Origin: Agelas oroides | Lineage: Eukaryota; Porifera; Demospongiae; Agelasida; Agelasidae | Direction of reading: 5' to 3' | Assembly (NCBI GenBank): GCA_949130485.1 | Contig: OX422189.1 | Coordinates: 9,517,992 to 9,581,991 of the forward strand | Length of the DNA stretch: 64,000 nt | Shown: piece by piece, positions 609 to 43,517 of the stretch | Layout: every line of letters starts with the position of its first letter | Position numbering within the stretch: position 1 is the first letter of the stretch | Notes under the pieces: generated by a model | Told to the model about the DNA's origin: nothing | The model's input: the letters and a program-made list of their open reading frames with translations, nothing else | Databases searched by the model: none | Program-made: the position numbers and the translations under genes

Positions 609-3600
609 GAGAGTGGTCATCTCCAGCTGTGACTGGCACAAAGCCTCCTCCTCTCACCAGCTTCTCCTTCACCAAAGTTGACAGCAGGAGGGCTGTGGTG
701 TATGGAGGGGGTGCAGGTTTGAAGGCGTATGGTGATGCCTATGTACTTGAGCTGGATAAGTGGGTGAGTGCAATATAGAATTGTGTAACATGTAATTATG
801 TGACAATATGTTTATGACTAGCTTTGATTGGAAAGAAGCCACAATACTTGTAGTTGTTGACATGTAACTAGACTATGTTGTCATGAACCTTCACATTCAA
901 CAATGTAGCTCTTTCATGTTAAAACCACTCTAAGTATGTGAGTCAATTTTGAATACAACTAGTGTACTGTGGGAGGACAGCTGGTTGTCAGTTAGTTATG
1001 TACATGAGCTGGATAAGTGTGTGAGTGTAACGTGTTGTGGACTAGTTTTGAAGTAGGCCATTGGAAGGAAGCCACAATATTTGATTGTTGACATGATGTA
1101 ACTAGGTTATGTTGTCATGCCAGTACTTTCAATATATAACTAAATTTAATTTGGGAAATTGGATACTGCAGCATGTTTTATCACTCTAACAGGAGTTGAG
1201 GATATACAAACTGTCAGTTACTGTATGAAGGTTTACTGTGTATAGTAGTGATTGTGAAGTTATCCTGTCAGAGTGCCACTTATACAGAAATGTTTCAGCT
1301 TTTGCCGTTTGTGATCAATGTCATAGTTATGCTATCAATAAACGAGTCTATATGTATTATGTACACTGCTTAGTCTTTCAAAGATGACAGTTACCACCAC
1401 CATATTTGGTATGATCATCAGTCACATGGAGCTGCAGTGCATTGTGTACATAACTGTGGGTCTTGACTTCCTCAGCACTGGACCAAACTGGACACCACTG
1501 GAGGTTCCAGGTCACTTGCAAGGTTCGGCCATGCTACATGTTGTATAGCTGGTCCCCTCACTGGGCAGGAGCACCCACTGCTGCTGGTGGGAGGTGGTCT
1601 CAGTGGTGGTGTGTTCAGTCGAAGTGTACTCAAAGACATGTGGGTGTTGGATGTTGACAGAGGAGTGTGGAGTGAGGTTAGTGAGTTGATTTCTCTGGTG
1701 TATGATGAGTTGCATCAAGAGTGCATGTTATACGTACGTACCGTTGCTGTTGCTTACATACATGTGGCTGTGTGCCTTGTGACTCTTGTATAGCTAGCTA
1801 CAGTGTACCCAGTGGATGTACCACCCGTACATAGACTCATGTTTATGGATTTATGCTAACATAGTTTGTATACCTGAACAGTGTGTGTTCCAATGTACTT
1901 GCAATACTAGTGTACACACTAACACAAGTATGTTATGTAACGGATGTTTCACCAGTTGCTATTGCCTCCTCCTGTACAGGTTACTCTTCCCCAAGAAATG
2001 GTACCACGGTGTTTGCACACTGCTACTGTGTTTGGGTCTGGACACAACTTCAGGATGGTGGTCATGTTTGGTGGAAGAAGGGAGCTTTTTGGAGGCCCAA
2101 TGGCTGAGACAACCCTCCTCCATCTTGGTGAGTGTGCAGTTTGGAACATAACATGTTACACAAGCAGGAACATCCCCTTTGCATGGTAAAGTGTCTACAT
2201 CAGGAGTAGCAGTGGCAACTTGAAGGTGGTCAAGCCACTAGAGTAATAATCCTTGTGAAGTATGTTTTCTAGTGCTGTTCAGCTAAGACAAGAGCAGTAC
2301 AAGTATAGAAGAATGACTGAAAGTGAACTCAGTAATGATAGAGAATTGTGTATGTAAGAGCTGATCAATTGCACACATTAATTGTAAACATTTTGCTTCA
2401 GCTAGCACTGTATTCAGCAGTCAGGAAATGTTCTTCTAGCATGTTGGTGTACTTTAGTGCTCTTTAGTTATGAGACCAGAACTGTGAAACGAAAGTAGCT
2501 AACCCTCTCTAATGTAACTGATTCTACACGTGATAGTCATAAACCTGAACCAGCCAGACTAAAACCACCACTGTATACATTCACCCACCCAGTTCCACAG
2601 CCCCCATCTGCAAGGAAGCTAACAAAATCATGAGAGAGAAATATCAACTGGTTCCTGAATTGATTGTGTATAGTCTACGTAATGATTCATACTCTGCCAC
2701 AAGGTCATAGTGCATGACTGAGTGGTAGGGGTATCCGACTGGCACTCAGAATCAACTCCCAGTTGAACATTTTTCTCTCTGAGAAGTGAAGTCCATTGCA
2801 TGCAATGGACCATGTGCACATGGCACTATCAAACAATGTTCTCTTACGTTGTTTCCATTCAATATTCCATCTGTCATAAATTATTACCATCTAGCTGTGT
2901 CAGTTTTTAGTAGCCTATACAATTCAGATTCCTGTCTGTGTATTTCCATTTCAAGAGTGAGAATCAGTTGGAATTCGGCTGAGGCCTCTTGGCAATTGCT
3001 GCTTATGTAGCTTGTCTTCCGCTCTTCTGCCACGGGTCCAAGTGGCTTAATGGTAAGAGCGTCTGACTATAGTATTCAGAAGGTGTTGGGTTTCAATCCC
3101 AGCTGGATCCTGGATTTCCATTCAGTATTCCAGCTGTCATAATATATCACCATTATAGCTGCGTCAAGTTTTGGCTGTCACAACTCTCCTTCCTCCACAC
3201 TTTCTCACTTCTTTCCTTCATCTCAGAGTGCCGCAGGGGTAGGTGGCAAGTAACAAGGGTGGTGACAAACAGGGAGCTTGCAAGACCAGTAGAGAGGCTG
3301 AGGGAGCAGATGGAGAAGCTGCAGCTGCGTTCATCACACAGATCTGATGGGAAAGCAGGCATGTTGGAACAACAGCTGCCCGTGGCTGAGGAGAGCGTGA
3401 GGAGGTTGGAGGCAGAGAAACAGGTAGCTGAAACAAGAGCTGATATTGCAGAGAGAAGGGTAAATACTAGAGAAGTCTGGAAGGAGACAAACTGGTCGGA
3501 TCAGAGAGGCTATCTACATTACTAAACCTGTTCTCACTACCCAATCTTCCTTGGATTCATTCTGCAGATTGCTGACCTACAGAGGAGAGCAGAAGAGGCA

Positions 3601-4782
3601 GAGAAGAAAGTCAGAGATGCAGAGAATACCGACCTCATAAGGCAGACCACTGATGCTAACCAGAGAATGAGAGAAGCAGAGGCTAGAGCTTGGGAATCCA
3701 CACAAGCTGTCACACAAGCTGAGCAAAGGGCGACACAAGCTGAGCAAAGAGCCACACAAGCTGAGCAAAGAGCCACACAATCTGACCAAAGAGCCACACA
3801 ATCTGACCAAAGAGCCACACAAGCTGAGCAAAGAGCTACACAAGCTGAGGAAAGAGCAACACAAGCTGAGCAAAGGGCCACACAAGCTGAGGCAGGAGCA
3901 CATTTCTTGCAGCAGCAGAATGAAGAAATGGTAGTGAGGGTGAGACAAGCGGAGCAGACAGCAAGAGAGGCGCAGGAGAGAGCAAGGATGACTGAGCAGA
4001 GAGCCCAGAGACTGGAGGCAAGAAGTCATGATCAGTTCTGGGTAGTGAATAGAGAAGAGATCCAGCTAACCGACCAGGAACTTGGCAGAGGTGGATGGGC
4101 TGTAGTGAAAGTAGCCAAGTTCCGAGGCCTCAGAGTGGCAGCCAAGTGTCTGCACACCCTCATTGTCTCTGACTACAACCGACAGCTGTTTGTGAGGGAG
4201 ATGAGTATTGCTGCCAGAGTGCGCCACCCCAACCTGGTGCAGTTCATTGGAGCTATGATGGAGGGAGAACCCATCATCCTGACAGAGCTGATGTCCACAA
4301 GCCTGAGGGCTGTCTTAGAGCGTAGGCCATTCAACCCTGCTCAGATCACCTCCATCAGTCTGGATGTGGCCAGAGCCCTCAACTACCTCCACCTGATGCA
4401 CCCTGACCCCATCATCCATCGTGACATTAGTAGCGCTAATGTCCTGCTGGAGCCTGGGCCTAGCAACAGCTGGAGGGCCAAAGTCTCCGACTATGGCTCA
4501 GCCAACTTCCTCCAGCAACTGAGAACAGCTGGTCCTGGCAACCCGACATATGCTGCCCCAGAAGCCGACATTCCCTCTCAGCAGTCACCAAAAATGGATG
4601 TCTATAGCTATGGTGTTCTCCTGCTGGAGACGTGCAGTCGAAGGTTTCCCAATCCTGAGGAGTGTGAAGCCCTTCTCCAGCGAGTCCAGCAGCCAACCAT
4701 GGTGGCACTGATACAACAATGCATGGAACAAGAACCTACGAGAAGGCCGACAATGAGTGACATCATTGGACAGTTGGAGTGA
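609..4782 (+). CDS. Kelch - coiled-coil - TKL-like protein kinase, copy 1 (5' partial)
   Basis: Five exons are visible: 609-763, 1476-1676, 1980-2127, 3227-3459 and 3568-4782 (TGA). All have GT-AG borders and compatible phases; exon 1 (first Kelch blades) is outside the window. Exons 2-4 carry Kelch motifs (VVYGGG, LLLVGGG, VVMFGG, LELDKW). Exon 5 and the start of exon 6 are Glu/Arg/Gln-rich coiled coil, with about eleven 7-residue repeats of RATQAEQ type between about 3709 and 3890. The kinase runs from about 4040 to the stop: glycine loop GRGGWAVV, VAAK lysine, HRDISSANVLL (HRD at 4417-4425), DYG at 4489-4497 in place of DFG, AAPEA, DVYSYGVLLLE and RRPTMSDI. The catalytic residues are present, so it should be active; substrate unknown. 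No membrane segment or signal peptide is seen. The 3' part is almost identical to copy 2. The assignment to TKL is by motif resemblance. Confidence 0.85.
2705..3225 (+). other. intron 4 of copy 1 with tRNA-like segments
   Basis: This is intron sequence shared by all units between the last Kelch exon and the coiled-coil exon. A first element at about 2708-2765 has a D-arm-like GAGTGGTAG and an anticodon-stem-like pair; a second, better tRNA-like element follows at 3034-3110. No open exon was found here. Confidence 0.4.
3034..3110 (+). repeat. tRNA-derived element (SINE head or tRNA pseudogene), unit 1
   Basis: A cloverleaf can be drawn: ends GGGTCCA/TGGATCC, an A-box-like AGTGGCTTAATGG, an anticodon stem TCTGA/TCAGA and a T-arm GGG-TTTCAAT-CCC. 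The anticodon loop is enlarged by 2 bases relative to units 2 and 3, and one extra base breaks the acceptor/D junction, so it is unlikely to be a working tRNA. Copies sit at the same place in introns of units 2 and 3. Confidence 0.5.
3709..3890 (+). repeat. coding 21-bp minisatellite (heptad repeat), copy 1
   Basis: About eleven tandem copies of a 21-bp unit encode ATQAEQR-type heptads (with AEQ, SDQ and AEE variants). The homologous stretches have about 5 copies in gene copy 2, 2-3 in copy 3 and 8 in copy 4. Copy number changes in whole heptads, so the coiled coil is lengthened or shortened without loss of register. Confidence 0.8.
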
Positions 4783-5158
4783 TGTGCTTCCATAACACAA
4801 TTGGTAGAACAATTAACTAGAAAGGCAATGCCACTGTTTTCCACTTGTATTAGCCAGATACTAGCTGTTTGTTTAGGAACTAAATCATTGTGTATGTTTT
4901 TGTAACTAGTTGGTAATATTCTATGTGTAATTATTGTGAGTGTGTGTTCTGAGTTTGTACTGTGTCCTAGTTAGTTCTGAGTTTGTGCCATGTTCTTGCT
5001 ACCCTGGACTGACTTGATGACAACACTTTGTGCAACCAGAACTGGTACAGTCTGTGGATGGTACAAAATACAGTAATGAGACTCCAAATCCAAACTAGTT
5101 TCTTGTTCCCAGACTTCTCCCCAACATTATCATACATGATGAAAACTGGGGAGGAGCC
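4783..5158. other. 3' flank of copy 1
   Basis: The sequence is 3' UTR and spacer. It is nearly identical to 17144-17400 after copy 2 and less similar to the 3' flanks of copies 3 and 4. I see no further coding exon before the kinase relic at 5159. Confidence 0.4.
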
Positions 5159-5518
5159 TGGCCATGTCCCTGGCATCACTGCTGGAGGGCGATCCCATTC
5201 CCCTCATTGTCAAGCGATCACTGCTTGCAGATGTGGCACGTGGATTGCAATTCCTCCACACCTGTATTCACCTGCACACCTTCATTGTACACAAGAGATC
5301 TAACTGCCCAGAATGTTCTTCTAAATTCATCTCAAGTTGCCAAAATCAGTGACTTTGGTAGCTAGCTGCTGCATCATGAAACTGCAGCAAATGACCAAGC
5401 TCACTCAAAAGCCTGGTTCTATAACGTGCATGCCCCTGAAGCATTTGCAGATACTCCACTATACAATGTCGAGAAATTTGACATCTCCTTCAACACAAGT
5501 CAGAAAGTGGTTGAATAA
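5159..5518 (+). pseudogene. relic of a second kinase (HKDLTAQN type), unit 1
   Basis: Three frames together spell a kinase core. The first gives MSLASLLEGDPIPL and LLADVARGLQFLH up to IVHK; after a one-base shift DLTAQNVLLNSS and KISDFGS; after a second shift, near MP, PEAFADTPLYNVEKFD. A TAG follows DFGS and a TAA ends the last frame. It differs from the upstream kinase family (HRDISSAN, DYG), so it comes from another gene, probably the one that carried the death domain further on. Unit 2 has lost all but the last 45 bp (from about 17401), apparently by a deletion between AGAA microrepeats. Confidence 0.65.
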
Positions 5519-5724: not shown

Positions 5725-5790
5725 CCAGCAGTCCCCCCTCAGTGCCACTGACCTGCACTCTGCTTCCACTGATGTGCCACAGTCTCAGCC
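5725..5790 (+). pseudogene. linker exon relic of kinase-death-domain locus, unit 1
   Basis: A short conserved frame encodes QQSP..SATDLHSASTDVPQSQP and is followed by the donor GTAAGT. It recurs in units 2 (about 17640-17708), 3 (about 30308-30373) and 4 (about 42898-42965). Its position between kinase relic and death-domain exon suggests a linker, but its phase does not directly fit the next death-domain exon, so a further exon or a lost piece is needed. Confidence 0.4.
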
Positions 5791-6641: not shown

Positions 6642-6721
6642 ACAGCAAACAAAAACAGTGTGTAAAGAGTTAATAAACAAATTGTGTCTGTAATGTGTTC
6701 TGATTGTATGAACTGTTATAG

Positions 6722-6955
6722 GTATCCTAAATGAGAAGCCAACTCTATATGACCTCATGGAGAAGGTCGCAGCTGATATCCCAGCCAAATGGGAGGAGGT
6801 GGGCTATGCCCTTGGAATTACAAGACCATACACAGCGTATCAAGTATGAAATTACTCCATTACTTATCCCAATGACAGCATATCGAGAGATGTTTGCCCA
6901 CTGGCTAAAGAATGAAGAGTGCAGTGTTGAGATCAGTAAATCAAGAGGAAGATAG
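6722..6955 (+). pseudogene. death-domain exon relic A, unit 1
   Basis: An acceptor TTATAG precedes a frame with NEKPTLYDLMEKVAADIPA, WEEVGYALGI and TRPY. This matches helices 1-3 of a death domain and the intact homologue at 53613-53902. A 2-base deletion after TRPY shifts the frame, so the rest (KYEITPLLIPMTAYREMFA) is read only in another frame. The same deletion is present in unit 2. Death domains mediate homotypic assembly in immune and apoptotic signalling; this copy cannot encode one. Confidence 0.65.
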
Positions 6956-7221
6956 TCCACAATAGCTAGCTGCAAACTTTAAATTTGTACCACAGAACTT
7001 TCAACTGTAGAACTGATAACTTTGTCTTCTAGCTAGTAATTATCATGTGTTCATGCAATTGAGTTCCAATCACAACTTAGTATAGAAAGACTTTGCAATA
7101 CCATAATTATGCATACATTGTAATTATAGACTACACTATAATTATATAGCCTTGTTTAGGGAATGAGGGTGACATGTACATAGCTACGTAGCAATGTATG
7201 CCACGTGCATGCATGACTGCT

Positions 7222-8370
7222 GTGTACACCAATCAAGCAATCAATAATAGCAACAACCACCATATCCTAGCTTCACACATGTACACCAATCAAGCAATCA
7301 ATAATAGCAACAACCACCATATCCTAGCTTCACACATGAACACCAATCAAGCAATCAATAATAGTAACAACCACCATATCCTAGCTTCACACATGTACAC
7401 CAATCAAGCAATCAATAATAGCAACAACCACCATATCCTAGCTTCACACATGTACACCAATCAAGCAATCAACAACCACCATATCCTAGCTTCACACATG
7501 TACACCAATCAAGCAATCAACAACCACCATATCCTAGCTTCACACATGTACACCAATCAAGCAATCAATAATAGCAACAACCACCATATCCTAGCTTCAC
7601 ACATGTACACCAATCAAGCAATCAACAACCACCATATCCTAGCTTCACACATGTACACCAATCAAGCAATCAATAATAGCAACAACCACCATATCCTAGC
7701 TTCACACATGTACACCAATCAAGCAATCAACAACCACCATATCCTAGCTTCACACATGTACACCAATCAAGCAATCAACAACCACCATATCCTAGCTTCA
7801 CACATGTACACCAATCAAGCAATCAACAACCACCATATCCTAGCTTCACACATGTACACCAATCAAGCAATCAATAATAGCAACAACCACCATATCCTAG
7901 CTTCACACATGTACACCAATCAAGCAATCAACAACCACCATATCCTAGCTTCACACATGTACACCAATCAAGCAATCAATAATAGCAACAACCACCATAT
8001 CCTAGCTTCACACATGTACACCAATCAAGCAATCAACAACCACCATATCCTAGCTTCACACATGTACACCAATCAAGCAATCAACAACCACCATATCCTA
8101 GCTTCACACATGAACACCAATCAAGCAATCAACAACCACCATATCCTAGCTTCACACATGTACACCAATCAAGCAATCAATAATAGCAACAACCACCATA
8201 TCCTAGCTTCACACATGTACACCAATCAAGCAATCAACAACCACCATATCCTAGCTTCACACATGTACACCAATCAAGCAATCAATAATAGCAACAACCA
8301 CCATATCCTAGCTTCACACATGAACACCAATCAAGCAATCAACAACCACCATATCCTAGCTTCACACATG
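7222..8370 (+). repeat. 48/57-bp minisatellite, 22 copies, unit 1
   Basis: Twenty-two tandem units occur in two lengths, 48 bp and 57 bp, differing by a 9-bp AATAATAGC-type insert (encoding NSN). Both lengths are multiples of three and free of stops in one frame, giving YTNQAINN(SNN)HHILASHM repeats from the ATG at 7198 straight into the death-domain frame that follows. A single copy at 43557-43615 in unit 4 is probably the ancestral state. Whether it is translated is unknown. Confidence 0.85.
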
Positions 8371-8550
8371 TATATCCGGAATGAGAAGCCAGCTCTATAT
8401 GACCTCATGGAGAAGGTTGCAGCTGAGATTCCAGCCAAATGGGAGGAGGTGGGCTATGCCCTTGGAATTACAAGACCGTCCATGCAGCATAACCCAATGA
8501 CAGCGTATCTGGAGATGTTTACCCACTGGCAAAATAAAGAACGAAACTGA
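8371..8550 (+). pseudogene. death-domain exon B fused to the minisatellite, unit 1
   Basis: The frame continues from the last repeat into IRNEKPALYDLMEKVAAEIP, WEEVGYALGI, TRPSMQ and NPMTAYLEMFTHW and ends at TGA 8548-8550. Compared with relic A it lacks about ten residues (the KYEITPLLI stretch), so helix 4 is shortened. The intron acceptor TATAG seen before the unit 3 exon has been replaced by repeat sequence. It could be a fused translatable frame or an accident; I treat it as a relic. Confidence 0.5.
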
Positions 8551-11247: not shown

Positions 11248-14200
11248 ATGGCTGCTCATCATACCAGCTACGAGCCACTACCCAGAGCTGCACATGCTGC
11301 AGTTGCTGTGGACAATAAGCTGCACATGTGGGGTGGTTGGGCTGGGTCAAAGGAGAAGTCACGAGAGCTAACAAAACATGTGGAGGTGTTTGACATCTCC
11401 AAGGAGCTATGGGAGCAGAAACCAACCCATGGCACCCCACCACCTGGACTGTGTGGCACTGCGTACACAGTGGTGGGGTCGTGTTTGTTTGTGTTTGGAG
11501 GGTCTGATGGTTTGTCCTACCACAACAGCCTCCTTAAGCTTGACCTACACACCTTTCACTGGGAGCGGGTGCAAGTATCAAACCCCTCTAGTGGCCCACA
11601 GAGGAAGACAGGCTGCGGGATGGTTTCCTATGGTGATAACCTGCTGGTGGTCTTTGCTGGGTGGACGGACAGTGGGGAGACAGACGAACTGCATGTCTTT
11701 GACTTAGACAAAGGTGAGTACAGTCTGTGTACCAAACCACAAGCCAAGCAATATTATACGGTTCATGTGGTGCAGTAAGGAAGTTTAGATGTTATGTCTG
11801 GAGTGACTGTTGTACCCACTCACTTTCTGAGTGGGTACAACCAAGGGAGCACTGACCACAAACTCGACTCGATGAGCCCTTGGTATAACAGTCCTCCAGA
11901 CTTTGGTGATACCAGACAAGAAGGGTGGCAGCAACAACATGCCACTCATGATAAACGTAAACAGATTTGATTGTACACAAAGTGTACCTTGTGTTGGTTG
12001 CTAGTGTCATTGAGCACACTCTGTTAAGTTGTGTTGATTGATTTGCTTCATGTCATACTACTTGTTTTCCTTGATGAGAATGTTGAGTAGTCCATCTGAA
12101 CAAGTCACCAAGCTGCAGATGGTTGGGTTGTGCACACATGAACTATGACCTGGGAATAAGACTAGTGGAAGATTAAAGTGTTCCGGATCCCTCTTAGCTG
12201 TATGTGTGGTTCATTGTCCAACTAATCAGTGCACAATAATGTGGTTGTTGGAGGAAATCTCAATCAACTACTTGTGTGCCACAGGACAACCTACACATGT
12301 TCTGACCTGTATTAGTGGTCATCTCCAGTTGAGACTCTCTTCACTATAATTATGTGTGGATCATTGTCCAACTAATCAGGTCACAATACTGTATTGTCAT
12401 GTTTCTCTCCACTGTTACAGGAGAGTGGTCATCTCCAGCTGTGACTGGGACAAAGCCTCCTCCTCTCTCCTGGTTCTCCTTCACCAAAGTTGACAGCAGG
12501 AGGGCTGTGGTGTGTGGAGGGGCTGCAGGTTTGGAGAAATATGGTGATGCCTACGTACTTGAGCTGGATAAGTGGGTGCGTGCATAATAGAATTGTGTAA
12601 CTTGTAATTATGTGACAATATGTTGATGACTAGCTTTGATTGGAAAGGAGCCATGATACTTGCAGTTGTTGACATGTAACTAGGCTGTGTTGTCATGAAC
12701 CTTCACATTCAACAATGTAGCTCTTTCATGTTAAAACCACTCTAAGTATGTGAGTCAATTTTGAATACCACTAGTGTACGGTGGGAGGACAGTTGGTTGT
12801 CAGTCAGTTATGTACATGAGCTGGATAAGTGTGTGAGTGTAACGTGTTGTGGACTAGTTTTGAAGTAGGCCATTGGAAGGAAGCCACAATACTTGATTGT
12901 TGACATGATGTAACTAGGTTATTTTGTCATGACAGTACTTTCAACTTGTAATCTAATTAATGTTGGATACTGCAGCATGTTTTATCACTCTAACAAGGTT
13001 GAGGATATACAAACTATCAGTTACTGTATGAAGGTGTACTGTGTATAGTAGTGATTGTGAAATTATCCTGTCAGAGTGCCTTTTTACGGAAATATTTCAG
13101 CATTTGTCGTTTGATCGTTTGTGATCAATGTCATAGTTATGCTATGAATAAACGAGCAGCCTATATGTATTATGTACACTGCTTAGTCTTTCAATAATGG
13201 CAGTTACCACCACCATATTTGGTATGATCATCAGTCACATGGAGCTGCAGTGCATTGTGTACATGACTGTGGGTCTTGCCTTCCTCAGCAATGGACCAAA
13301 CTGGACACCACTGGAGGTCCCAGGCCACCTGCAAGGTTCTACCATGCTACATGTTGTATTGCTGGTCCCCTCACTGGACAGGAGCATCCACTGCTGCTGG
13401 TGGGAGGTGGGTTCAATGGACATGCCCTCAAAGACATGTGGGTGTTGGATGTTGACAGAGGAGTGTGGAGTGAGGTTAGTGAGTTAATTTCTCTGGTGTA
13501 TGATGAGTTGCATCAAGAGTGCATGTTATACATATGTGCTGTTGCTTACATACATGTGGCTGTGTGCCTTGAATCTCTTGTATAGCCAGCTACAGTAGGA
13601 TGTACCCAGTGGATGTATATACCAAATGTTCATAGACTCATGTTTATGGATTTATGCTAGGCACAGTTTGCATACCTGAACAGTATGTGTTCCAATGTAC
13701 TTGCAGTACTAGTGTACACACTAACACAAGTATGTTATGTAACGGATGTTTCATCAGCTGCTATTACCTCCTCCTGTACAGGTTACTCTTCCTCAAGGAA
13801 TGGGACCACGATATTGGCACACTGCTACTGTGTTTGGGTCTGGACCAAACTTCAGGATGGTGGTCATGTTTGGTGGGAGGAGGAGGATTGTGGGTGACCC
13901 AATAGCTGAGACAACCCTCCTCCATCTTGGTGAGTGTGCAGTTTGGAACATAACATGTTACACGAGGAGGAGCATTCCCTTTGGTAAAGTGTCCACATCA
14001 GGGGCAGCACCAGCCACTTGAAGGTGGTCAGACCACTAGAGTAATAATCCTTGTGAAGTATGTTTTTTAGTGCTGTTCAGCTAAGACAAGAGCAGTACAA
14101 GTATAGAAGAATGAATGAATGTGAACTGAGTAATGATAGAGAATTGTGTATGTAAGACAGTAGACACCAGGGTTGAGAGAAGAAAATAGTAGAATACAGT

Positions 14201-18635: not shown

Positions 18636-18869
18636 GTATCCTGAATGAGAAGCCAACTCTACATGACCTCATGGAGAAGGTCGCAGCTGATATCCCAGCC
18701 AAATGGGAGGAGGTGGGCTATGCCCTTGGAATTACAAGACCATATACAGCGTATCAAGTATGAAATTACTCCATTACTTATCCCAATGACAGCATATCGA
18801 GAGATGTTTGCCCACTGGCTAAAGAATGAAGAGTGCAGTATTGAGATCAGTAAATCAAGAGGAAGATAG
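18636..18869 (+). pseudogene. death-domain exon relic A, unit 2
   Basis: It begins after the acceptor TTATAG with ILNEKPTLHDLMEKVAADIP and WEEVGYALGI. It has the same 2-base deletion after TRPY as unit 1, so the inactivating change predates the split of these two units. The remainder (YREMFAHWLKNEECSIEI) is in another frame. Confidence 0.65.
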
Positions 18870-19171
18870 ACCACTATAGCTAGCTGGAAACTTAAAAAAG
18901 TATAAATTTGTTAGCCTCGTTCCCAGGCTAATTTGTACCACAGAACTTTCAACTGTAGAACTGATAACTTTGTCTTCTAGCTAATAAATATTATCATGTG
19001 TTCATGCAATTGAGTTCCAATCACAATTAGTATAGAAAGACTTTGCAATACCATAATTATGGATGCATTGTAATTACAGACTACACTATAATTATATAGC
19101 CTTGTTTAGGGAATGAGGGTGACATGTACATAGCTACGTAGCAATGTATGCCACGTGCATGCATGACTGCT

Positions 19172-20698
19172 GTGTACACCAATCAAGCAATCAATAATAG
19201 CAACAACCACCATATCCTAGCTTCACACAATCATGTACACCAATCAAGCAATCAACAACCACCATATCCTAGCTTCACACATGTACACCAATCAAGCAAT
19301 CAACAACCACCATATCCTAGCTTCACACATGTATACCAATCAAGCAATCAACAACCACCATATCCTAGCTTCACACATGTACACCAATCAAGCAATCAAT
19401 AATAGCAACAACCACCATATCCTAGCTTCACACATGTACACCAATCAAGCAATCAACAACCACCATATCCTAGCTTCACACATGTACACCAATCAAGCAA
19501 TCAACAACCACCATATCCTAGCTTCACACATGTATACCAATCAAGCAATCAACAACCACCATATCCTAGCTTCACACATGTACACCAATCAAGCAATCAA
19601 TAATAGCAACAACCACCATATCCTAGCTTCACACATGTACACCAATCAAGCAATCAACAACCACCATATCCTAGCTTCACACATGTACACCAATCAAGCA
19701 ATCAACAACCACCATATCCTAGCTTCACACATGTACACCAATCAAGCAATCAACAACCACCATATCCTAGCTTCACACATGTATACCAATCAAGCAATCA
19801 ATAACAGCAACAACCACCATATCCTAGCTTCACACATGTACACCAATCAAGCAATCAATAATAGCAACAACCACCATATCCTAGCTTCACACATGTACAC
19901 CAATCAAGCAATCAACAACCACCATATCCTAGCTTCACACATGTACACCAATCAAGCAATCAACAACCACCATATCCTAGCTTCACACATGTACACCAAT
20001 CAAGCAATCAACAACCACCATATCCTAGCTTCACACATGTATACCAATCAAGCAATCAATAACAGCAACAACCACCATATCCTAGCTTCACACATGTACA
20101 CCAATCAAGCAATCAACAACCACCATATCCTAGCTTCACACATGTATACCAATCAAGCAATCAATAACAGCAACAACCACCATATCCTAGCTTCACACAT
20201 GTACACCAATCAAGCAATCAACAACCACCATATCCTAGCTTCACACATGTATACCAATCAAGCAATCAATAATAGCAACAACCACCATATCCTAGCTTCA
20301 CACATGTACACCAATCAAGCAATCAACAACCACTATATCCTAGCTTCACACATGTACACCAATCAAGCAATCAACAACCACTATATCCTAGCTTCACACA
20401 TGTACACCAATCAAGCAATCAACAACCACCATATCCTAGCTTCACACATGTACACCAATCAAGCAATCAACAACCACTATATCCTAGCTTCACACATGTA
20501 CACCAATCAAGCAATCAACAACCACTATATCCTAGCTTCACACATGTACACCAATCAAGCAATCAACAACCACCATATCCTAGCACACATGTACACCAAT
20601 CAAGCAATCAATAACAGCAACAACCACCATATCCTAGCTTCACACATGTACACCAATCAAGCAATCAACAACCACCATATCCTAGCTTCACACATGTA
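19172..20698 (+). repeat. 48/57-bp minisatellite, about 30 copies, unit 2
   Basis: Same repeat as in unit 1 but longer, with a different order of 48- and 57-bp units. A 4-bp AATC insertion after the first unit shifts the frame, but a new ATG at 19233 opens a frame through 29 repeats into the death-domain sequence. A few units carry CACTATATC instead of CACCATATC, and one lacks 6 bp. Confidence 0.85.
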
Positions 20699-20876
20699 TA
20701 TCCGGAATGAGAAGCCAGCTCTATATGACCTCATGGAGAAGGTTGCAGCTGAGATTCCAGCCAAATGGGAGGAGGTGGGCTATGCCCTTGGAATTACAAG
20801 ACCATCCATGCAGCGTAACCCAATGACAGCATATCGGGAGATGTTTACCCACTGGCAAAATAAAGAACGAAACTGA
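20699..20876 (+). pseudogene. death-domain exon B fused to the minisatellite, unit 2
   Basis: The frame runs on from the repeats into IRNEKPALYDLMEKVAAEIP, WEEVGYALGI, TRPSMQRNPMTAYREMF and THWQNKERN, ending at TGA 20874-20876. It has the same shortened helix 3-4 region as unit 1 B and unit 3. No splice acceptor remains in front. Confidence 0.5.
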
Positions 20877-30754: not shown

Positions 30755-30927
30755 GTATCCGGAATGAGAAGCCAACTCTACATGACCTCATGGAGAAGGT
30801 CGCAGCAGAGATTCCAGCTAAATGGGAGGAGGTGGGCTATGCCCTTGGAATTACAAGACCATCCATGCAGCGTAACCCAATGACAGCGTATCTGGAGATG
30901 TTTACCCACTGGCAAAATAAAGAATGA
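30755..30927 (+). pseudogene. death-domain exon, unit 3 (short form, open)
   Basis: After the acceptor TTATAG an uninterrupted frame of 57 codons encodes IRNEKPTLHDLMEKVAAEIP, WEEVGYALGI, TRPSMQRNPMTAYLEMF and THWQNKE, then TGA. It lacks the helix-4 stretch (KYEITPLLI) and helices 5-6 of the full domain at 53613-53902, so it is probably a remnant, though still spliceable from an upstream exon in the right phase. Confidence 0.5.
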
Positions 30928-33340: not shown

Positions 33341-33586
33341 TTGAGACCACTACGTGAACTGGGTACGAGGCTACAAAAATTTGGTGTATTGAAACCTCCT
33401 TACTCAGCTACTGCAAGAGACATACAAGCTCAGTCGGACTCATGGGAAAAGCTGTTGCAGTATAGCTATGGCTTATTAGCAGCAGTGATACCCTGGGGTA
33501 CATTCATACAAACAGTGCCTAAAATATGGGAATATCTCATAGTTTTGTTGTCCTCATCGTTCACTTGCACTAGCTCAGTATGTTGA
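33341..33586 (+). CDS. conserved hypothetical frame at unit end, unit 3
   Basis: The 81-codon counterpart of the frames at 9165 and 21327 has a two-codon in-frame insertion (QS near ARDIQAQSDSWEK). Preserved frame in three units is the only support; no family is recognised. Confidence 0.3.
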   Translation: MRPLRELGTRLQKFGVLKPPYSATARDIQAQSDSWEKLLQYSYGLLAAVIPWGTFIQTVPKIWEYLIVLLSSSFTCTSSVC

Positions 33587-35910: not shown

Positions 35911-38900
35911 ATGGCTGCTCGGCGCACCAGCTATGAGCCACTGCCCAGATCTATCCATGCTGCTGTTGCTGTGGACAATAAGCTGCACATGTGGGGTGGT
36001 TGGGCTGGGTCAAAGGAGAAGTCACGGGAGATAGTAAAACATGTGGAGGTGTTTGACATCTCCAAGGAGCTATGGGAGCAGAAACCAACCCATGGCACCC
36101 CACCACCTGGACTGTGGGACACTGCATACACAGTGGTGGGGTCGTATCTGTTTGTGTTTGGGGGGTCTGATGGTGTGTCCCGTCACAACACCCTCTTCAA
36201 GCTTGACCTACGTACCTTTCAGTGGGAGCAGGTGCAAGTATCAAACCCCTCTAGTGGCCCACAGAGGAAGATAGGCTGTAGGATGGTGTCCTATGGTGAT
36301 AACCAGCTGGTGGTTTTTGCCGGGTCCATGAGTGTTGCTGAGTACACAGACGAACTGCATGTCTTTAACTTAGACAAAGGTGAGTACAGTCTGTGTACCA
36401 AACCACAAGCCAAGCAATATTACATGGTTCATGTGGTGCAGTAAGGAAGTTATGTCTGGAGTGACTGTTGTACTCACTCAGATTCTGAGTGGGTACAACC
36501 AAGGGTGCATTGACCACAAACTCGACTCGATAAGCCCTTGGTATAACAGTCCCTCCAGACTTTGGTGATGGTAGACAAGAAGGGTGGCAGCAACATGCCA
36601 CTCATGATAAACGTAAACAGATTTGATTGTACACAAAGTGTACCTTGTGTTGGTTGCTAGTCTCATTGAGCACACTCTGTTAAGTTGTGTTGATTGATTT
36701 GCTTCATGTCATACTACTTGTTTTCCTTGATGAGAATGTTGAGTAGTCCATCTGAACAAGTCACCAAGCTGCAGATGGTTGGATTGTGCACACATGAACT
36801 ATGGCCTGGACATAAGACTAGTGGCAGATTAAAGTATTCCAGATCCCTCTTAGCTATATGTGAGGTTCATTGTCCAACTAATCAGTGCACAATAATGTTG
36901 TTGTTGGAGGAAATCTTAATCAACTACTTGTGTGCCATAGGACAACCTACACATGTACTGACCTGTATTATTAACACCACACCATAACTTACAGCTATGT
37001 GTATGTTGTGTATTGTACTTCAGTGGTGTATGTTCCTCGATCTCCACTGCTTCAGGAGAGTGGTCATCTCCAGCTGAGACTCTCTTCACTATAATCATGT
37101 GTGGATCATTGTCCAACTAATCAGTACAGAATACTGTATTGTCATGTTCCTCTCTACTGTTACAGGAGAGTGGTCATCTCCAGCTGTGACTGGCACAAAG
37201 CCACCTCCTCTCTCCGCCTTCTCCTTCACCAAAGTTGACAGCAGGAGGGCTGTGGTGTATGGAGGGGTGACAGATGGTGGAGCATCTGGTGATGCCTATG
37301 TACTTGAGCTGGATAAGTGGGTGCGTGCAATATAGAATTGTGTAACATGTGACAATATGTTAATGACTAGCTTTGATTGGAAAGGAGCCACGATACTTGT
37401 AGTTGTTGACATGTAACTAGACTATGTTGACATGAACCTTCACAATCAACAATGTAGCTCTTTCATGTTAAAACCACTCTAAGTATGTGAGTCAATTTTG
37501 AATACAACTAGTGTACGGTGAGAGGACAGCTGGTTGTCAGTCAGTTATGTACATGAGCTGGATAAGTGTGTGAGTGTAACGTGTTGTGGACTAGTTTTGA
37601 AGTAGGCCATTGGAAGGAAGCCACAATATTTGATTGTTGACATGATGTAACTAGGTTATGTTGTTGTGCCAGTACTTTCAACTTGTAATCTAATTAGTTT
37701 TGGAAATTGGATACTGCAGCATGTTTTATCACTCTAACAGGGTTGAGGATATACAAACTATCAGTTACTGTATGAAGGTGTACTGTGTATGGTAGCGATT
37801 GTGAATTCTTCCTGTCTTTATACAGAAATGTTTCAGCATTTGTCGTTTGATCATTTGTGATCAATGTCATTGTTATGCTATGAATAAACGAGGAGCCTAT
37901 GTATTATGTACACTGCTTAGTCTTTCAATAATGACAGTTACCACCACCATATTTGGTATCATCATCAGTCACATGGAGCTGCAGTGCATTGTGTACATGA
38001 CTGTGGGTCTTGACTTCCTCAGCACTGGACCAAACTGGACACCACTGGAGGTCCCAGGCCACCTCCAAGGTGCCACCATGCTACATGTTGTATTGCTGGT
38101 CCTCTCCCTGGACAGGAGCACCCACTACTGCTGGTGGGAGGTGGGCTCAGTGGAAGTATGTTCAGTCGAAGTGTACTCAAAGACATGTGGGTGTTGGATG
38201 TTGACAGAGGAGTGTGGAGTGAGGTTAGTGAGTTGATTTCTCTGGTGTATGATGAGTTGCATCAAGAGTGCATGTTATACATATGTGTAGTCTATCAAGC
38301 TAGACCCTCTCTCACCTTCTAGCTTGATAGACTAACATATGTGCTGTTGCCTGGTGTATGATGAGTTGCATCAAGAGTGCATGTTATACGTATGTCGTTG
38401 CTTACATACATGTGGCTGTGTGCCATGAATCTCTTGTATAGCTAGCTACAGTAGGATGTACCCAGTGGATGTATATATCAAATGTTCATAGACTCATATT
38501 TATGGATTTATGCTAACATAGTTTGTATACCTGAACAGTGTGTGTTCCAATGTACTTGCAATACTAGTGTACACACTAACTCAAGTATGTTATGTAACGG
38601 ATGTTTCATCAGTTGCTATTGCCTCCTCCTGTACAGGTTACTGTTCCTCAAGAAATAGGACCACGATGTGGCCACACTGCTACTGTGGTTGGGTCTGGAC
38701 CGAACTTCAGGATGGTGGTCATGTTTGGTGGGCGGAGGGAGTTTTGGGAAGACCTAATAGCCAAGATAATCCTCCTCCATCTTGGTGAGTGTGCAGTTTG
38801 GGACATAACATGTTGCACAAGCAGAAACATTCCCTTTGGTAAAGTGTCTACGTCAGGAGTAGCAGTGGCAACTTTGTAACGGACCGACCTCGACACACGA

Positions 38901-41591
38901 TAAGTCAGTAACTCAACAATGATTATAGAAGGGGCCTAGCCCAACATAACAATACAGCTTATATATTCCTGCGTACCGGTAACAATAATGTGGCCACATT
39001 GTCTAGGATACATTAACCACTGTCTAGTAGCACTGGGTATGCGCATACAGAGTCAGCTATTGCATAAACATTAACACAAAACAGTCCAGTTCACCACAAA
39101 CTTGAAGGTGGTCAGACCATTTGAGTAATAATCCGTGCTAAGCGTTGAAAATTTTGTATCAGCATTGTTTTTTGGCTATCAGGAGCACTTACAAATTGCT
39201 TTATTTAGCTATAAGACGAGAGCTGTGTAAGTATGAAAGCATTACTGAATGTAAACTTTGTAATATGATAGAGAATGCACAAGAGCTGATTATTTGTATG
39301 CATAGCATGTAAAAGTTTTACCACTGTTTTCAGCAGTCAGGAAGTGTTCACATAGCATCTTGGAGTACTCTATTGCTCTCTGGCTATAAAACCATGAAAG
39401 CAAACAAGAAAAGGAGCTAACCTCCTCTAATGCTAACTCAGTAGTTACATTCTCCACCCATGCATGATGGAAGTTCTTCATAAACAGCTGGACCAAAGCG
39501 GACCAGCCAGAATGGCGATGTTACAAAAGAGAAATGTAAACTGGTTTGGCTAGGGCCTATGAAATGAAGTACTTGTGTAGCATAATCTCTTATACTCTGT
39601 TTGGGGGGTCATATATAGTGCATGCATCGTTCAGTGGTAAGGATATCTGACTGACACTCAGCCCACCTGCATTTTTGTCTTTGGGGAGTGAAGCCAAAAA
39701 CTGACACATCTAGAGGGTGACATAACTGCTGGGAAATATATAGTGCCATGTACAATGTACTTTGGTTATGAATATTGGTGCATGGCCTATCTGATGCCAG
39801 CTTGTGTATTTCTGTTTCAAGATTCCCGCTTTCTTTTTTTTCTTCTATTTGATGTACTATGTGAATTGCCACAACTAACAACAACACTCTCACAACTCTC
39901 CTTCCTCCCACATTTTCTCGTTTCTTTACTCATATCAGAGTGGCGTGAGGGTTTTTGGAAGTTGACAAGAGACAGGTGGCAGGTGACACGGGTGGTGACA
40001 AAGGAGGAGCTAGGGAGACCTGTGGAGAGGCTGAGGGAGCAGATGGAGAAGCTGCAGCTGCATTCAGCAAAGGTGGTCATGTTGGAGCAACAGCTGGCCA
40101 TGGCTGAGGAGAGGGTGAGGAGACTGGAGGCAGAGAAACAGGCAAGGGTTGAACAAGCAGAAAGAGTATGCATTTGCTGGTAGCATTCCTATTTACACTA
40201 ACTTTCATATTTTTAATTCATTACAAAGAGTTCCATTGTATTCTTTTGTACAAATTGTTGACCTACAGCAGAGAGCTGCGTTTAAGGGTCAAGATTCTGA
40301 TGCACTAAGGAGGGCAGAAAATGCAGAGAGAGAGGTGAGGAGGTTGAGGAAAAGGTGTTCACTGTGTATCAACATGTATTGAACATTTAGTACTTTCGGA
40401 TTCATTCTCTAGATTGCTGACCTAAAGAGGAGAGCAGAAGAGGCAGAGAGGAGAGCCAGAGATGCAGAGAATACCACTAGTGACCTCATAAGGCAAACCA
40501 CTGATGCTAACCAGAGAATGAGGGAGGCAGAAGCCAGGGCTCGAGAATCCACACAAACTGTCGTGCAAGCTGAACAAAGAGCTGCACAATCTGAGCAAAG
40601 GGCTACACAAGCTGAGCAAAGGGCTACACAAGCTGACCAAAGGGCCACACTAGCTGACCAAAGTGCCACACTAGCTGACCAAAGAGCAACACGAGCTGAG
40701 GCAGGAGCACATTTCTTGCAGCAGCAAAATGAAGAAATGGTAGTGAGGGTGAGACAAGCGGAGCAGACAGCAAGAGAGGCCCAGGAGAGAGCAAGGACAA
40801 CTGAGCAGAGAGCCCAGAGACTGGAGGCGAGAGGTTATGATCAGTTCTGGGTAGTGAATAGGGAAGAGATCCAGCTCACTGACCAGGAACTGGGCAGAGG
40901 TGGGTGGGCGGTAGTAAGAGTAGCGAAGTTCCGTGGTCTTCGAGTGGCAGCCAAGTGTCTGCATACCCTCATTGTCTCTGACTACAACCGACAGCTGTTT
41001 GTGAGGGAGATGAGTATCGCTGCCAGAGTGCGTCACCCCAACCTGGTGCAGTTCATTGGGGCCATGATGGAGGGAGAGCCCATCATCCTGACAGAGCTGA
41101 TGGCCACAAGCCTGAGGGCTGTCTTAGAGCGTAGGCCATTCAACCCTGCTCAGATCACCTCCATCAGCGTGGATGTGGCCAGAGCCCTCAACTACCTCCA
41201 CCTGATGTACCCTGACCCCATCATTCATCGGGACATCAGCAGTGCCAATGTCCTGCTGGAGCCCGGACCCAGCAACAGCTGGAGGGCCAAAGTCTCCGAC
41301 TACGGCTCAGCCAACTTCCTCCAGCAGCTGAGAACAGCTGGTCCTGGCAACCCAACATATGCTGCCCCAGAAGCCGACATTCCCTCTCAGCAGTCACCAA
41401 AAATGGATGTCTACAGCTATGGTGTTCTCCTGCTGGAGATGTGCAGTCGAAGGTTTCCCAATCCAGAAGAGTTTGAAGCCCTTCTCCAGCAAGTGCAGCA
41501 GCCAACCATGGTGGCACTGATCCGACAATGCATGGAACGAGAACCTACGAGAAGACCGACAATGAGTGACATCATTGGACAGTTGGAGTGA
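35911..41591 (+). CDS. Kelch - coiled-coil - TKL-like protein kinase, copy 4 (complete)
   Basis: Exons: 35911-36379, 37166-37320, 38023-38223, 38637-38784, 39939-40165, a probable extra coiled-coil exon 40269-40334, and 40413-41591 (TGA). Phases match throughout; with the extra exon the protein is about 814 residues, without it 792. Kelch motifs fill exons 1-4; exon 3 is five codons longer than in copies 2 and 3, as in copy 1. The coil has about eight heptad repeats, some with LADQ variants. The kinase carries GRGGWAVV, VAAKCL, HRDISSANVLL, DYG, AAPEA and DVYSYGVLLLE, so it should be catalytically competent. Introns carry a 47-bp hairpin insertion (intron 3) and a solo LTR (intron 4). Exon 1 is nearly identical to copy 3. 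Confidence 0.87.
38288..38334. mobile_element. 47-bp foldback insertion in intron 3 of copy 4
   Basis: The insert has perfect 15-bp inverted ends (TAGTCTATCAAGCTA and its complement) around a 17-bp core. It is flanked by a 9-bp direct repeat ACATATGTG (38279-38287 and 38335-38343) that occurs once in the empty site of copy 2. Its ends and core resemble the 238-bp element at 43772-44009. A following partial duplication repeats TGGTGTATGATGAGTTGCAT. Confidence 0.8.
38875..39098. mobile_element. solo LTR in intron 4 of copy 4
   Basis: A 224-bp insertion absent from the other units starts TGTAACGG and ends ACCACA (TG...CA ends). It is flanked by a 5-bp duplication AACTT (38870-38874 and 39099-39103). 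A TATA-like TTATATATTC lies inside. This is the signature of a solo LTR from an LTR retrotransposon; the clade cannot be told. Confidence 0.75.
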
Positions 41592-42687
41592 TGTGCTCTA
41601 TAACACAATCGTTTACGTAGAACAAAAAGGCAATGCCACTATTTTCCACTTGTATCAGCCGGATACTAGCTTTTTTTTTCATTGTATAAGATTTTGTAAT
41701 ATTCTTATATGAATTTTATGTACAAATATATAATTATTGTGAGTGTGTGCGTTCTAGGTTTGTACTGCATGTGTCCTAGTTTGTTCTGAGTTTGCGCCAT
41801 GTTCTTGCTACCCTGGACTGACTTGCTGACAACATTTTGTGCAACTAGAACTGGTTTGTGGGTTAACAGGAAGAAGTTTTTTATACAGGGTCCATTCCAA
41901 CATTGCAACAATTCCATTCCAAAGAAAGTGGGGGAGAGGCATGCAAGAATGTCCTTTGCTTGGGCATTGTAAAGTACCAGGTTGGCTATACGCTTTGTAT
42001 GTGCCTGATCAAAAAAAACAGCAGATTGAGTTGAGCACAGTGTTGAGAACGGTTATGGAAATTTTAATAGGAAACATCGATCTTCAAACTATGTTTCCAA
42101 AATCTTGATAATATGTTAAAGTCTGCATGGTGTCATGCTTCTCTTGTAAATGATGTGTTGTGTAAAGTACATAATTAAAGTCTGCATGGTGTCATGCTTC
42201 TCTTGTAAATGATGTGTTGTGTAAAGTACAAAAGAAAAATGTTTTTGGCAAACTACTGAAGACGTAATGCTATCATGCAAATAACTGATAGCCTCCTTTA
42301 AAAGTTTTCAGCCTTTGTACTTGTCCACTCAAATTAGAAAAGGGGAAATTCTCCAAAATTTCTGCTGTCTGGGTTAATTAGAGAGACAAAAAATTTAAGG
42401 TGTCCAGTCAAATTAATTAGACTGTCCACTCTTTTAGAGACAATATATGGCCAGCCAATGATGTCTTTTTTCAGAATACAGCTTTTATAGCTGTTGTCAA
42501 CTTGTGTAGAAAGTCGTGTTTACCTGTGAAATATTGCTTGAAAAATCATGTTCAAGTGTGGAATAGTAAGACTTCAATTCACAGGAAGTGACCTATAGGA
42601 ATAGAAGTCATACAACAGTATACAATTTCTCATGCACACAAACATGCGCACACAAACATTTGCTCCTGAACATTAACAACGCAGCTG
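41592..42687. other. 3' flank of copy 4, with a 2-copy direct repeat
   Basis: No gene was found. At about 42114-42235 a block of about 60 bp (TTAAAGTCTGCATGGTGTCA and onward) is present twice in a row. The rest resembles the flank of copy 3. Confidence 0.4.
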
Positions 42688-42850
42688 ATGGCAGACTTAC
42701 GGCATCCCAATGTAGTGCAGTTCTTAGGGGTACATTTCTTGGAGCGATCAGAACTATATCGTGGTGATGGCCATGTCCCTGGAATCACTGCTGGAGGGTG
42801 ATCCCATTCCCCTCACTGTCAAGCGATCACTGCTTGCAGATGTGGTGTGT
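42688..42850 (+). pseudogene. relic of the second kinase, unit 4
   Basis: One frame gives MADLRHPNVVQFLGVHFLER, a further frame gives VVMAMSLESLLEGDPIPL and KRSLLADV. These are the N-lobe/hinge part just before the segment kept in unit 1 (5159). A frameshift separates the two halves, and the catalytic loop is gone. RHPNVVQFLGV is a standard kinase helix C to beta-4 motif. Confidence 0.6.
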
Positions 42851-43291
42851 TCAACATCAATTAACTAAATACATGTACGTTGTACATCTCCACAGATGCA
42901 GCAGTCCCCCCACAGTGCCACTGACCTGCACTCTGCTTCCACTGATGTGCCACAGTCTCAGCCAGTAAGTAGTTTTCTACCTTCGAGATCCAGCAATTAT
43001 CAGTTGACAGTCCCAATATTTTTTGTTGTTGATTTGTGTACAATGCGTCTGAAAATCCTTGTAAACGGACTTTGCCCATGGGCGCTCTTTTGTGAGTCTA
43101 CGGTAGATGTAAATTTTGACCTCAGGGTGGTAGAATGGGGAAGGAGGCTACAGCAGCCCCCATCCAACTCCAAATCACCTATTAAAGCAATATGACTGCA
43201 GATGAGAGACATCAACTCATGTTACTGCACCCCCCCATCACAGCACACAAATTAGGTCTGTAATGTGTTCTGATTGTATGAACTGTTATAG

Positions 43292-43517
43292 GTATCCTGA
43301 ATGAGATGTCAACTCTACATGACCTCATGGAAAAAATAGCAGCTGATATCCCAGCCAAATGAGAGGAGGTGGGCTATGCCCTTGGAATTACAAGACCATA
43401 CATGCAGCGTATCAAGTATGAAATTACTCCATTACTTATCCCAATGACAGCATATCGAGAGATGTTTGCCCACTGGCTAAAGAATGAAGAGTGCAGTGTT
43501 GAGATCACTCACCAGTA
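43292..43517 (+). pseudogene. death-domain exon relic, unit 4
   Basis: After TTATAG the frame reads ILNEMSTLHDLMEKIAADIP but meets TGA where other copies have the tryptophan of AKWEEVG. Beyond the stop the frame is intact (GYALGITRPYMQRIKYEIT, MTAYREMFAHW), without the 2-base deletion of units 1 and 2. It is therefore broken by an independent mutation. Confidence 0.65.

What the first reader, a model, noticed from the sequence alone, without database searches (positions are those of the whole stretch)
609..43517. Tandem array of four Kelch - coiled-coil - kinase genes with linked death-domain relics
A Kelch propeller, an expandable coiled coil and a TKL-like kinase in one polypeptide is an architecture I do not recognise from characterised families. 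It is present four times in a row, each followed by relics of another kinase and death-domain exons. Kinase plus death domain is the layout of RIPK/IRAK immune kinases, and tandem amplification with decay is typical of fast-evolving recognition loci. The immune role is inference.
Basis: partly seen in the sequence, partly recalled or inferred. Interest (0 to 1): 0.75.

Follow-up and report, generated by a model that had tools for sequence, protein, structure and literature searches.

The report
Kelch-coil-kinase array with selected pocket
A stretch of a probable animal genome carries four neighbouring copies of a gene that joins a ring-shaped Kelch binding domain to a protein kinase; the kinase is nearly frozen while a few residues in the predicted binding pocket change fast under selection, as expected of a family of recognition receptors.

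Summary
The array is real. Four units of about 12 kb each carry a six-exon gene: Kelch propeller, heptad-repeat coiled coil and TKL-type kinase with its catalytic motifs, ending right after the kinase. Copies 2 (760 aa) and 4 (792 aa) are complete. Copy 1 is open but its first exon lies off the window. Copy 3 has a frameshift in exon 5.

The death-domain link is weaker than stated. Death-domain-like fragments follow every unit, but Pfam, PDB searches and folding did not confirm the domain. Second-kinase relics were found after units 1 and 4 only. Both look like a separate, decayed neighbour gene.

New here: the kinase is strongly constrained (dN/dS 0.04-0.14), the Kelch exons are not (0.62-0.76). 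A site model finds positive selection in Kelch (2dl 41.4; 0 of 60 simulations reach it) and none in the kinase. All 13 flagged sites lie in d-a or b-c loops. Three of the seven strongest align with KLHDC2 degron-pocket residues.

Best reading: intracellular recognition receptor kinases diversifying their ligand pocket. An immune or allorecognition role, and a sponge host, are inference.

The parts
609..4782 (+). Copy 1, exons 2-6 (609-763, 1476-1676, 1980-2127, 3227-3459, 3568-4782); exon 1 lies left of the window
   Evidence: No internal stop from exon 2 to the stop codon; AG/GT at the visible intron ends
11248..17143 (+). Copy 2, complete: exons 11248-11713, 12421-12575, 13289-13474, 13782-13929, 15703-15923, 16037-17143; 760 aa
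24009..29138 (+). Copy 3: exons 1-4 24009-24477, 25277-25431, 25976-26161, 26440-26587; exon 5 from 27747 (frameshifted); exon 6 28065-29138
   Evidence: exons 1-4 open, exon 6 open; exon 5 out of frame
35911..41591 (+). Copy 4, complete: exons 35911-36379, 37166-37320, 38023-38223, 38637-38784, 39939-40165, 40413-41591; 792 aa
   Evidence: 793 codons including the stop, no internal stop; Pfam
11248..13929 (+). Kelch propeller exons 1-4 of copy 2 (residues 1-318); selected sites with posterior 0.95 or more: 173, 190, 225, 281, 306
   Evidence: Pfam Kelch; best PDB matches KLHDC2, then LZTR1; site model
16037..16378 (+). Heptad-repeat coiled coil in exon 6 of copy 2; this part is 150, 114, 103 and 138 aa in copies 1-4
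   Evidence: 21-bp tandem repeats; lengths; one helix over residues 2-116 in the AlphaFold model, block pLDDT 62-85
16379..17140 (+). TKL-type kinase domain of copy 2; equivalents 4018-4779, 28374-29135, 40827-41588
   Evidence: PF00069; best PDB matches TAK1, CTR1; lysine, Glu, HRD, DYG and APE invariant in 4 of 4; dN/dS 0.04-0.14
5158..5362 (+). Relic of a second kinase after unit 1
   Evidence: tblastn E=0.002; PF07714 E=1.7e-4, below its cut-off
42685..42817 (+). Weak relic of a second kinase after unit 4
   Evidence: tblastn E=0.038; PF07714 E=0.1 on one of the two frames, none on the other
6730..8541 (+). Two death-domain-like fragments after unit 1 (6730-6919 frameshifted; 8380-8541 shortened), with a minisatellite between them
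   Evidence: no Pfam Death hit for the second
18644..20867 (+). Two death-domain-like fragments after unit 2 (18644-18833, 20706-20867)
   Evidence: no Pfam hit
30763..30924 (+). One death-domain-like fragment after unit 3, followed by a 50-bp minisatellite 30937-32793
43300..43491 (+). One death-domain-like fragment after unit 4, with an in-frame stop
53616..59101 (-). Minus-strand relic of a neighbour-type gene: kinase piece 59098-58928, death-domain-like exon within 53936-53616, with a LINE-like element between them

Best explanation
A tandem family of intracellular recognition receptor kinases. The Kelch propeller binds a peptide or protein ligand through its d-a/b-c loop face (inferred from KLHDC2). 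The coiled coil holds chains together (inferred). Ligand binding or clustering lets the TAK1-like kinase phosphorylate itself and downstream targets (inferred from the TKL family). Tandem duplication supplies copies, and selection changes the pocket residues copy by copy while keeping the propeller core and the kinase fixed (shown by the substitution pattern). The ligand is probably non-self or highly polymorphic (inferred).
For: Architecture and open frames. dN/dS over 6 copy pairs: kinase 0.04-0.14 (dS 0.13-0.25), Kelch 0.62-0.76 (dS 0.10-0.17). Within Kelch, pN/pS is 0.99-1.08 in d-a plus b-c loops, 0.11-0.50 in strands, 0.14-0.80 in the opposite loops; 49 of 130 against 8 of 49 positions vary (P=0.007). 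M2a beats M1a in Kelch (2dl 41.4, p=1e-9, about 5% of sites at omega about 13), not in the kinase (2dl 0). 0 of 60 simulations under M1a reach it (largest 8.3); it holds on the other two topologies, without the b-c loops, and in exons 2, 3 and 4 separately. All 13 sites with posterior over 0.5 lie in d-a or b-c loops (sites, partition, P=6e-6). Sites 190, 195 and 225 align with KLHDC2 R236, R241 and W270, named as ligand- or degron-binding residues (PMC11377542, one passage; R236 and R241 also in PMC12169847, one passage): 3 of the 7 sites with posterior 0.9 or more, P=2e-4; 2 of 5 at 0.95, P=0.004; 3 of 13 at 0.5, P=0.002. Kelch exon 2 differs by 7-16% between copies, its neighbour intron 2 by 4-6%. 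By eye, no N-terminal signal stretch.
Against: Four paralogues from one contig; no transcript, population or orthologue data. Synonymous change is also higher in the selected loops (pS 0.10-0.24) than in strands (0.06-0.10), and dS in exons exceeds intron 1-3 divergence, so mutation or gene conversion differs along the gene. Copies 1 and 2 are identical over 250 bases 3' of the kinase while the kinase differs at 26 of 762: segments have different histories. Intron 4 is as diverged as the Kelch exons (8-11% among copies 1-3) and mostly unalignable in copy 4 (32-40%). Exon 1 alone is not significant (p=0.086), and without the five four-state sites p=0.015. Two of seven KLHDC2 contact equivalents are invariant. 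The site model is my own code, not codeml. No ligand, expression or phenotype is known.
Confidence: 0.6

Rival explanations
1. Relaxed constraint: after duplication the Kelch half is drifting while the kinase is kept, and the changes mean nothing.
For: Kelch dN/dS is 0.62-0.76 overall and pN/pS in the loops is about 1, not above it; copy 3 carries a frameshift in exon 5.
Against: No stop or frameshift in the Kelch exons present in the window; strands and opposite-face loops are conserved; change is concentrated in two loop classes, with four different residues in four copies at five sites; M2a rejects the no-selection model.
Confidence: 0.12
2. Artefact of gene conversion or multi-nucleotide mutation: the site model is misled by mosaic histories or clustered changes.
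For: Mosaic histories are visible (identical 3' flank of copies 1 and 2 beside a diverged kinase). Several selected codons differ at two or three bases.
Against: The signal holds on each topology and in exons 2, 3 and 4 taken separately, and the same model on the kinase gives nothing. Conversion alone does not predict loop-face placement. I ran no recombination-aware or multi-hit model.
Confidence: 0.15
3. Diversification for a non-immune partner, such as gamete or tissue recognition, or paralogue-specific substrate docking.
For: Positive selection on a binding face is agnostic about the partner; nothing here shows an immune role.
Against: None direct; an invariant kinase with several pocket types fits either.
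Confidence: 0.3
4. One reading: a RIPK/IRAK-like kinase plus death-domain immune module.
For: A decayed neighbour gene with a kinase relic upstream of a death-domain-like exon after units 1 and 4 and on the minus strand.
Against: The Kelch-coil-kinase frame ends at the kinase with a stop in copies 1, 2 and 4. The death domain was not confirmed by Pfam, PDB search or folding. Kinase relics follow 2 of 4 units.
Confidence: 0.1
5. Kelch and kinase are separate genes and the joined model is wrong.
For: No RNA evidence was available.
Against: Consistent splice sites and phases in three open copies, exon 4 to exon 5 joining in frame in copies 1, 2 and 4. Joining the exons raises the Kelch match from E=1.6e-28 for exon 1's frame to 2.4e-52, though that supports exons 1-4 more than the join to the kinase.
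Confidence: 0.06

Closest known systems
Fungal HET-D/HET-E NLRs (NACHT plus WD40 propeller)
   Same: Positively selected residues in the d-a loop and b-c turn of a beta-propeller, with the rest of the fold homogenised (PMC1805685, 12 passages read)
   Different: WD40 not Kelch; NACHT and HET domains instead of a kinase; repeat units are exchanged within and between genes there
Human KLHDC2 Kelch propeller
   Same: Best PDB match of the Kelch part and best Pfam family; pocket residues align with variable sites
   Different: KLHDC2 is a ubiquitin ligase receptor for C-terminal degrons (PMC12035522, PMC12169847, one passage each); it has no kinase (recalled)
Entamoeba Src-like Kelch kinases (EhSrc, EiSrc)
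   Same: Kelch motifs and a kinase in one polypeptide (PMC5648430, seven passages read)
   Different: Linked there to actin; the passages read mention no coiled coil, tandem array or pocket selection
TAK1 (MAP3K7) and other TKL kinases
   Same: Closest solved kinase domains: TAK1 E=8e-25, CTR1 5e-24; then CSK 7e-21, TNNI3K 4e-18, IRAK4 1e-17 (best 60 of 514 seen)
   Different: No Kelch domain (recalled); CSK, a tyrosine kinase, ranks above IRAK4, so the group assignment is by best match only
RIPK1/IRAK kinases
   Same: A neighbouring decayed gene may have kinase then death-domain order like RIPK1 (order recalled)
   Different: The genes described here have no death domain

Membership tests
Kelch beta-propeller | Several Kelch motifs in series forming a closed propeller | tested here: met
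   PF24681 E=2.4e-52 and 1.7e-52 on spliced copies 2 and 4; KLHDC2 aligned over residues 10-301 in two pieces. Six blades and closure are my reading, not modelled
TKL protein kinase, catalytically competent | VAxK lysine, helix C Glu, HRD, D-x-G, APE; nearest relatives TKL | tested here: met
   All present and invariant in 4 of 4 copies (DFG is DYG); best PDB matches TAK1 and CTR1. No tree was built and activity was not tested
RIPK/IRAK (kinase plus death domain) | Death domain in the same polypeptide | tested here: not met
   Stop codon directly after the kinase domain in copies 1, 2 and 4; no death model in the spliced proteins
Death domain (for the flanking relics) | Match to the death fold family | tested here: inconclusive
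   No Pfam match for the fragments tested, no death domain in PDB searches, low-confidence six-helix model; resemblance to animal death domains is recalled only
Diversifying beta-propeller recognition receptor (HET-D/E-like mode) | Positive selection at d-a and b-c loop positions of a propeller | tested here: met
   comparison PMC1805685 (passages). Works like, not a member
HET-D/E NLR family | NACHT domain with WD40 repeats | tested here: not met
   At E up to 0.001 the spliced proteins of copies 2 and 4 match only Kelch or other propeller models and kinase models
Innate immune or allorecognition receptor | Binds non-self ligand and triggers a response | not testable with these tools
   Needs ligand, expression and genetics

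The most novel reading that the evidence does not exclude
An undescribed class of animal intracellular recognition receptor, in which a Kelch propeller with an adaptively diversifying degron-pocket-like site is wired through a length-variable coiled coil to an invariant TAK1-like kinase: an animal, kinase-coupled counterpart of the fungal HET-D/E propeller receptors, possibly reading peptide termini of microbial or allogeneic proteins.
Probability: 0.4. Interest if true: 0.85.

Novelty: new variant of a known kind. Interest (0 to 1): 0.7.

Why it matters
Animals without adaptive immunity must tell self from non-self with germline genes, and the receptors used in early animals are largely unknown (general knowledge). 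A locus where the ligand pocket changes under selection and the signalling kinase stays constant is a concrete, testable candidate. It would also suggest that this lineage and fungi independently chose the same two loops of a propeller as a variable recognition surface. It gives a short list of residues to test for ligand specificity.

Tried and rejected
Own-genome search: no genome is held for this window, so copies elsewhere could not be counted. Relatives: a viral-contig scan gave no relative among 171 pattern matches; a genome-contig scan gave 3 bacterial matches, 23-28% identical, of 514 pattern matches, not followed. Three of the four peptide patterns the tool chose came from the coil, and neither collection is meant to hold animals, so this says little. 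Death-domain claim: Pfam, phmmer, profile search and AlphaFold did not confirm it; I ran no fold search on so weak a model. Kinase structure: AlphaFold with four nearly identical rows gave a helix for the coil but no good kinase. The spliced protein was not sent for folding, because the tool's description admits only unchanged window translations. Relaxed constraint as the sole cause was tested and disfavoured. Papers: all ten searches used. In the rows listed (most lists were capped) I saw no Kelch-coil-kinase family in sponges or other animals; six exact phrases such as 'kelch kinase' gave 0 papers; subscription journals are mostly missing. The loop partition was set by hand from Kelch anchors before the site model was run, but after I had looked at the variable sites. 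In the Kelch site model copy 1 counts as missing data for exon 1, and copy 3's Kelch exons are included although its gene is frameshifted further on.
Full report
What is there. A self-comparison of the window shows a head-to-tail repetition with a period of about 12 kb from base 1 to about 43.5 kb, in matching blocks of 0.3-5 kb at 78-97% identity (blocks under 300 bases were not listed). Each unit holds the same gene. In copy 2 the exons 11248-11713, 12421-12575, 13289-13474, 13782-13929, 15703-15923 and 16037-17143 join in frame with GT-AG introns into 760 codons plus stop. Copy 4 joins into 792 codons plus stop, and exons 2-6 of copy 1 are open to the same stop. Copy 1's first exon lies left of the window. 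Copy 3 has open Kelch exons and an open kinase exon, but exon 5 is out of frame and meets a stop almost at once.

The protein. Pfam on the spliced copies 2 and 4 finds, at E up to 0.001, only Kelch or other propeller models (best PF24681, the KLHDC2/KLHL20 type, E=2.4e-52 and 1.7e-52) and kinase models. Six blades is my reading of the repeats. The best solved relatives of the Kelch part are KLHDC2 and LZTR1. Exons 5 and 6 encode a long coil built partly of seven-residue units; TRF finds 8.6, 3.5 and 6.4 units in copies 1, 2 and 4, and the coil part of exon 6 is 150, 114, 103 and 138 residues in copies 1-4. AlphaFold gives one helix over residues 2-116 of exon 6, while the kinase is not modelled well. 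The kinase is nearest to TAK1 and CTR1 among solved structures, then CSK, TNNI3K and IRAK4 (best 60 of 514 rows), and keeps lysine, glutamate, HRD, DYG and APE in all four copies. The frame stops directly after it. By eye there is no signal peptide; no predictor was run.

What the neighbours are. tblastn finds second-kinase fragments after units 1 and 4 and on the minus strand near 59 kb, and death-domain-like fragments after all four units and on the minus strand near 53.8 kb. The kinase fragments reach PF07714 only weakly (E=1.7e-4, 0.1 and 0.001, all below the cut-off; two further frames gave nothing). The death-domain identity rests on resemblance that I recall: Pfam gave nothing for the fragments tested, PDB searches returned no death domain, and the model has mean pLDDT 49.9. 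The order, kinase then death-domain-like exon, suggests a decayed second gene rather than a part of the first.

The main new result. Over the six copy pairs dN/dS is 0.04-0.14 in the kinase (dS 0.13-0.25) and 0.62-0.76 in the Kelch exons (dS 0.10-0.17). Dividing the Kelch part by structure, 49 of 130 positions vary in d-a plus b-c loops, 8 of 49 in a-b plus c-d loops and 16 of 134 in strands; pN/pS is 0.99-1.08, 0.14-0.80 and 0.11-0.50. A codon site model with four sequences prefers a positively selected class in Kelch (2dl 41.44) and none in the kinase. In 60 simulations under the null the largest value was 8.27. The signal persists on the two other topologies (55.8, 58.9), without the indel-prone b-c loops (28.7), and in exon 2 (22.7), exon 3 (11.2) and exon 4 (19.9) alone; exon 1, with three copies of which two are nearly identical, gives 4.9 (p=0.086). 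Without the five four-state sites it is 8.5 (p=0.015).

Where the sites are. Posterior of 0.95 or more falls on copy 2 residues 173, 190, 225, 281 and 306, each with four different residues in four copies; 13 sites exceed 0.5. All 13 are in d-a or b-c loops of the partition (P=6e-6; 5 of 5 gives P=0.011). By the phmmer alignment residues 173, 190, 195, 225 and 281 correspond to KLHDC2 A220, R236, R241, W270 and W321. A paper on KLHDC2 ligands names R236, R241, S269, Y163, W191, W270 and K147 in the pocket (PMC11377542, one passage read). W321 as a pocket residue is recalled. Five of those seven equivalents vary here (P=0.009); the K147 and W191 equivalents, both in exon 1, do not. Of the selected sites, 3 of 7 at posterior 0.9, 2 of 5 at 0.95 and 3 of 13 at 0.5 are among the seven (P=2e-4, 0.004, 0.002).

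A model-free check, with its limits. Between copies, Kelch exon 2 differs by 7-16%, exon 3 by 8-11% and exon 4 by 5-17%, while introns 1, 2 and 3 differ by 4-5, 4-6 and 5-9% and the kinase by 3-7%. Exon 1 differs by 9-11% between copy 2 and the others but by 2.6% between copies 3 and 4, less than intron 1 there (3.8%). Intron 4 differs by 8-11% among copies 1-3 and is largely unalignable in copy 4. Introns are not a clean neutral yardstick: dS in exons is above the divergence of introns 1-3, pS is higher in the selected loops than in strands, and copies 1 and 2 are identical over 250 bases 3' of the kinase stop. Gene conversion between units is therefore likely.

Mechanism. Shown: architecture, constant kinase, fast-changing loop positions. 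From established families: propellers bind partners through this face; TKL kinases signal by phosphorylation; coiled coils oligomerise. Inferred: a cytosolic receptor whose ligand clusters or releases the kinase, with the units supplying different specificities. The closest parallel in mode is the fungal HET-D/HET-E WD40 propeller, where positively selected codons lie in the d-a loop and the b-c turn (PMC1805685, 12 passages read). It is not the same family: it has NACHT and WD40.

Against known architectures. Entamoeba Src-like proteins have Kelch and kinase together (PMC5648430, seven passages; PMC2939887, one passage). Two sponges change expression of Kelch-motif and death-domain genes upon microbial signals (PMC6208332, 12 passages), but the full domain make-up of those Kelch genes is not given in what I read. 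Dictyostelium Roco proteins with Kelch and kinase are recalled, with PMC6320773 seen only in a listing. In the rows listed by ten searches of the open library I saw no animal Kelch-coil-kinase family (most lists were capped).

Verdict. Function, and the host, remain inferred.

Noticed in passing
44087-45246 and 61317-62472, minus strand: Two intronless copies of FIBP (PF05427 E=1.2e-114 for the intact one), 35 substitutions apart, homology confined to the coding region plus about 40 bases upstream; the first copy has a 4-base insertion that shifts the frame. Possibly retrocopies.
   Followed up: partly
50388-51320, minus strand: Single open frame with two Jacalin-like lectin domains (PF01419 E=2.7e-51).
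   Followed up: no
about 55015-58660, minus strand: LINE-like element with reverse transcriptase (PF00078 E=6.6e-41) and a weak endonuclease match below cut-off, lying between the minus-strand kinase and death-domain-like relics.
   Followed up: partly
7223-8372, 19173-20698 and 30937-32793: Large minisatellites (48-bp and 50-bp units) that abut the death-domain-like fragments; the two 48-bp arrays are open in frame with the fragment, and the 50-bp array repeats its C-terminal coding stretch.
   Followed up: partly
5785-6258 and 17703-18212, minus strand: Repeated open frame of 157-169 residues without a Pfam match; looks like a nuclease-type domain of a retroelement (recalled resemblance).
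   Followed up: no
962-1018, 12774-12830, 25630-25686, 37511-37566: Broken fragment in intron 2 of all four copies that weakly resembles part of Kelch exon 2, and a 23-26 base copy of the exon 2 start in intron 1 of copies 1, 3 and 4; possible donors for conversion.
   Followed up: partly
20842-25858 and 32743-37739: Two stretches leading into copies 3 and 4 share 5 kb at 96.9% identity, while copies 1 and 2 are identical over 250 bases after the kinase: segments of the array have different ages.
   Followed up: partly
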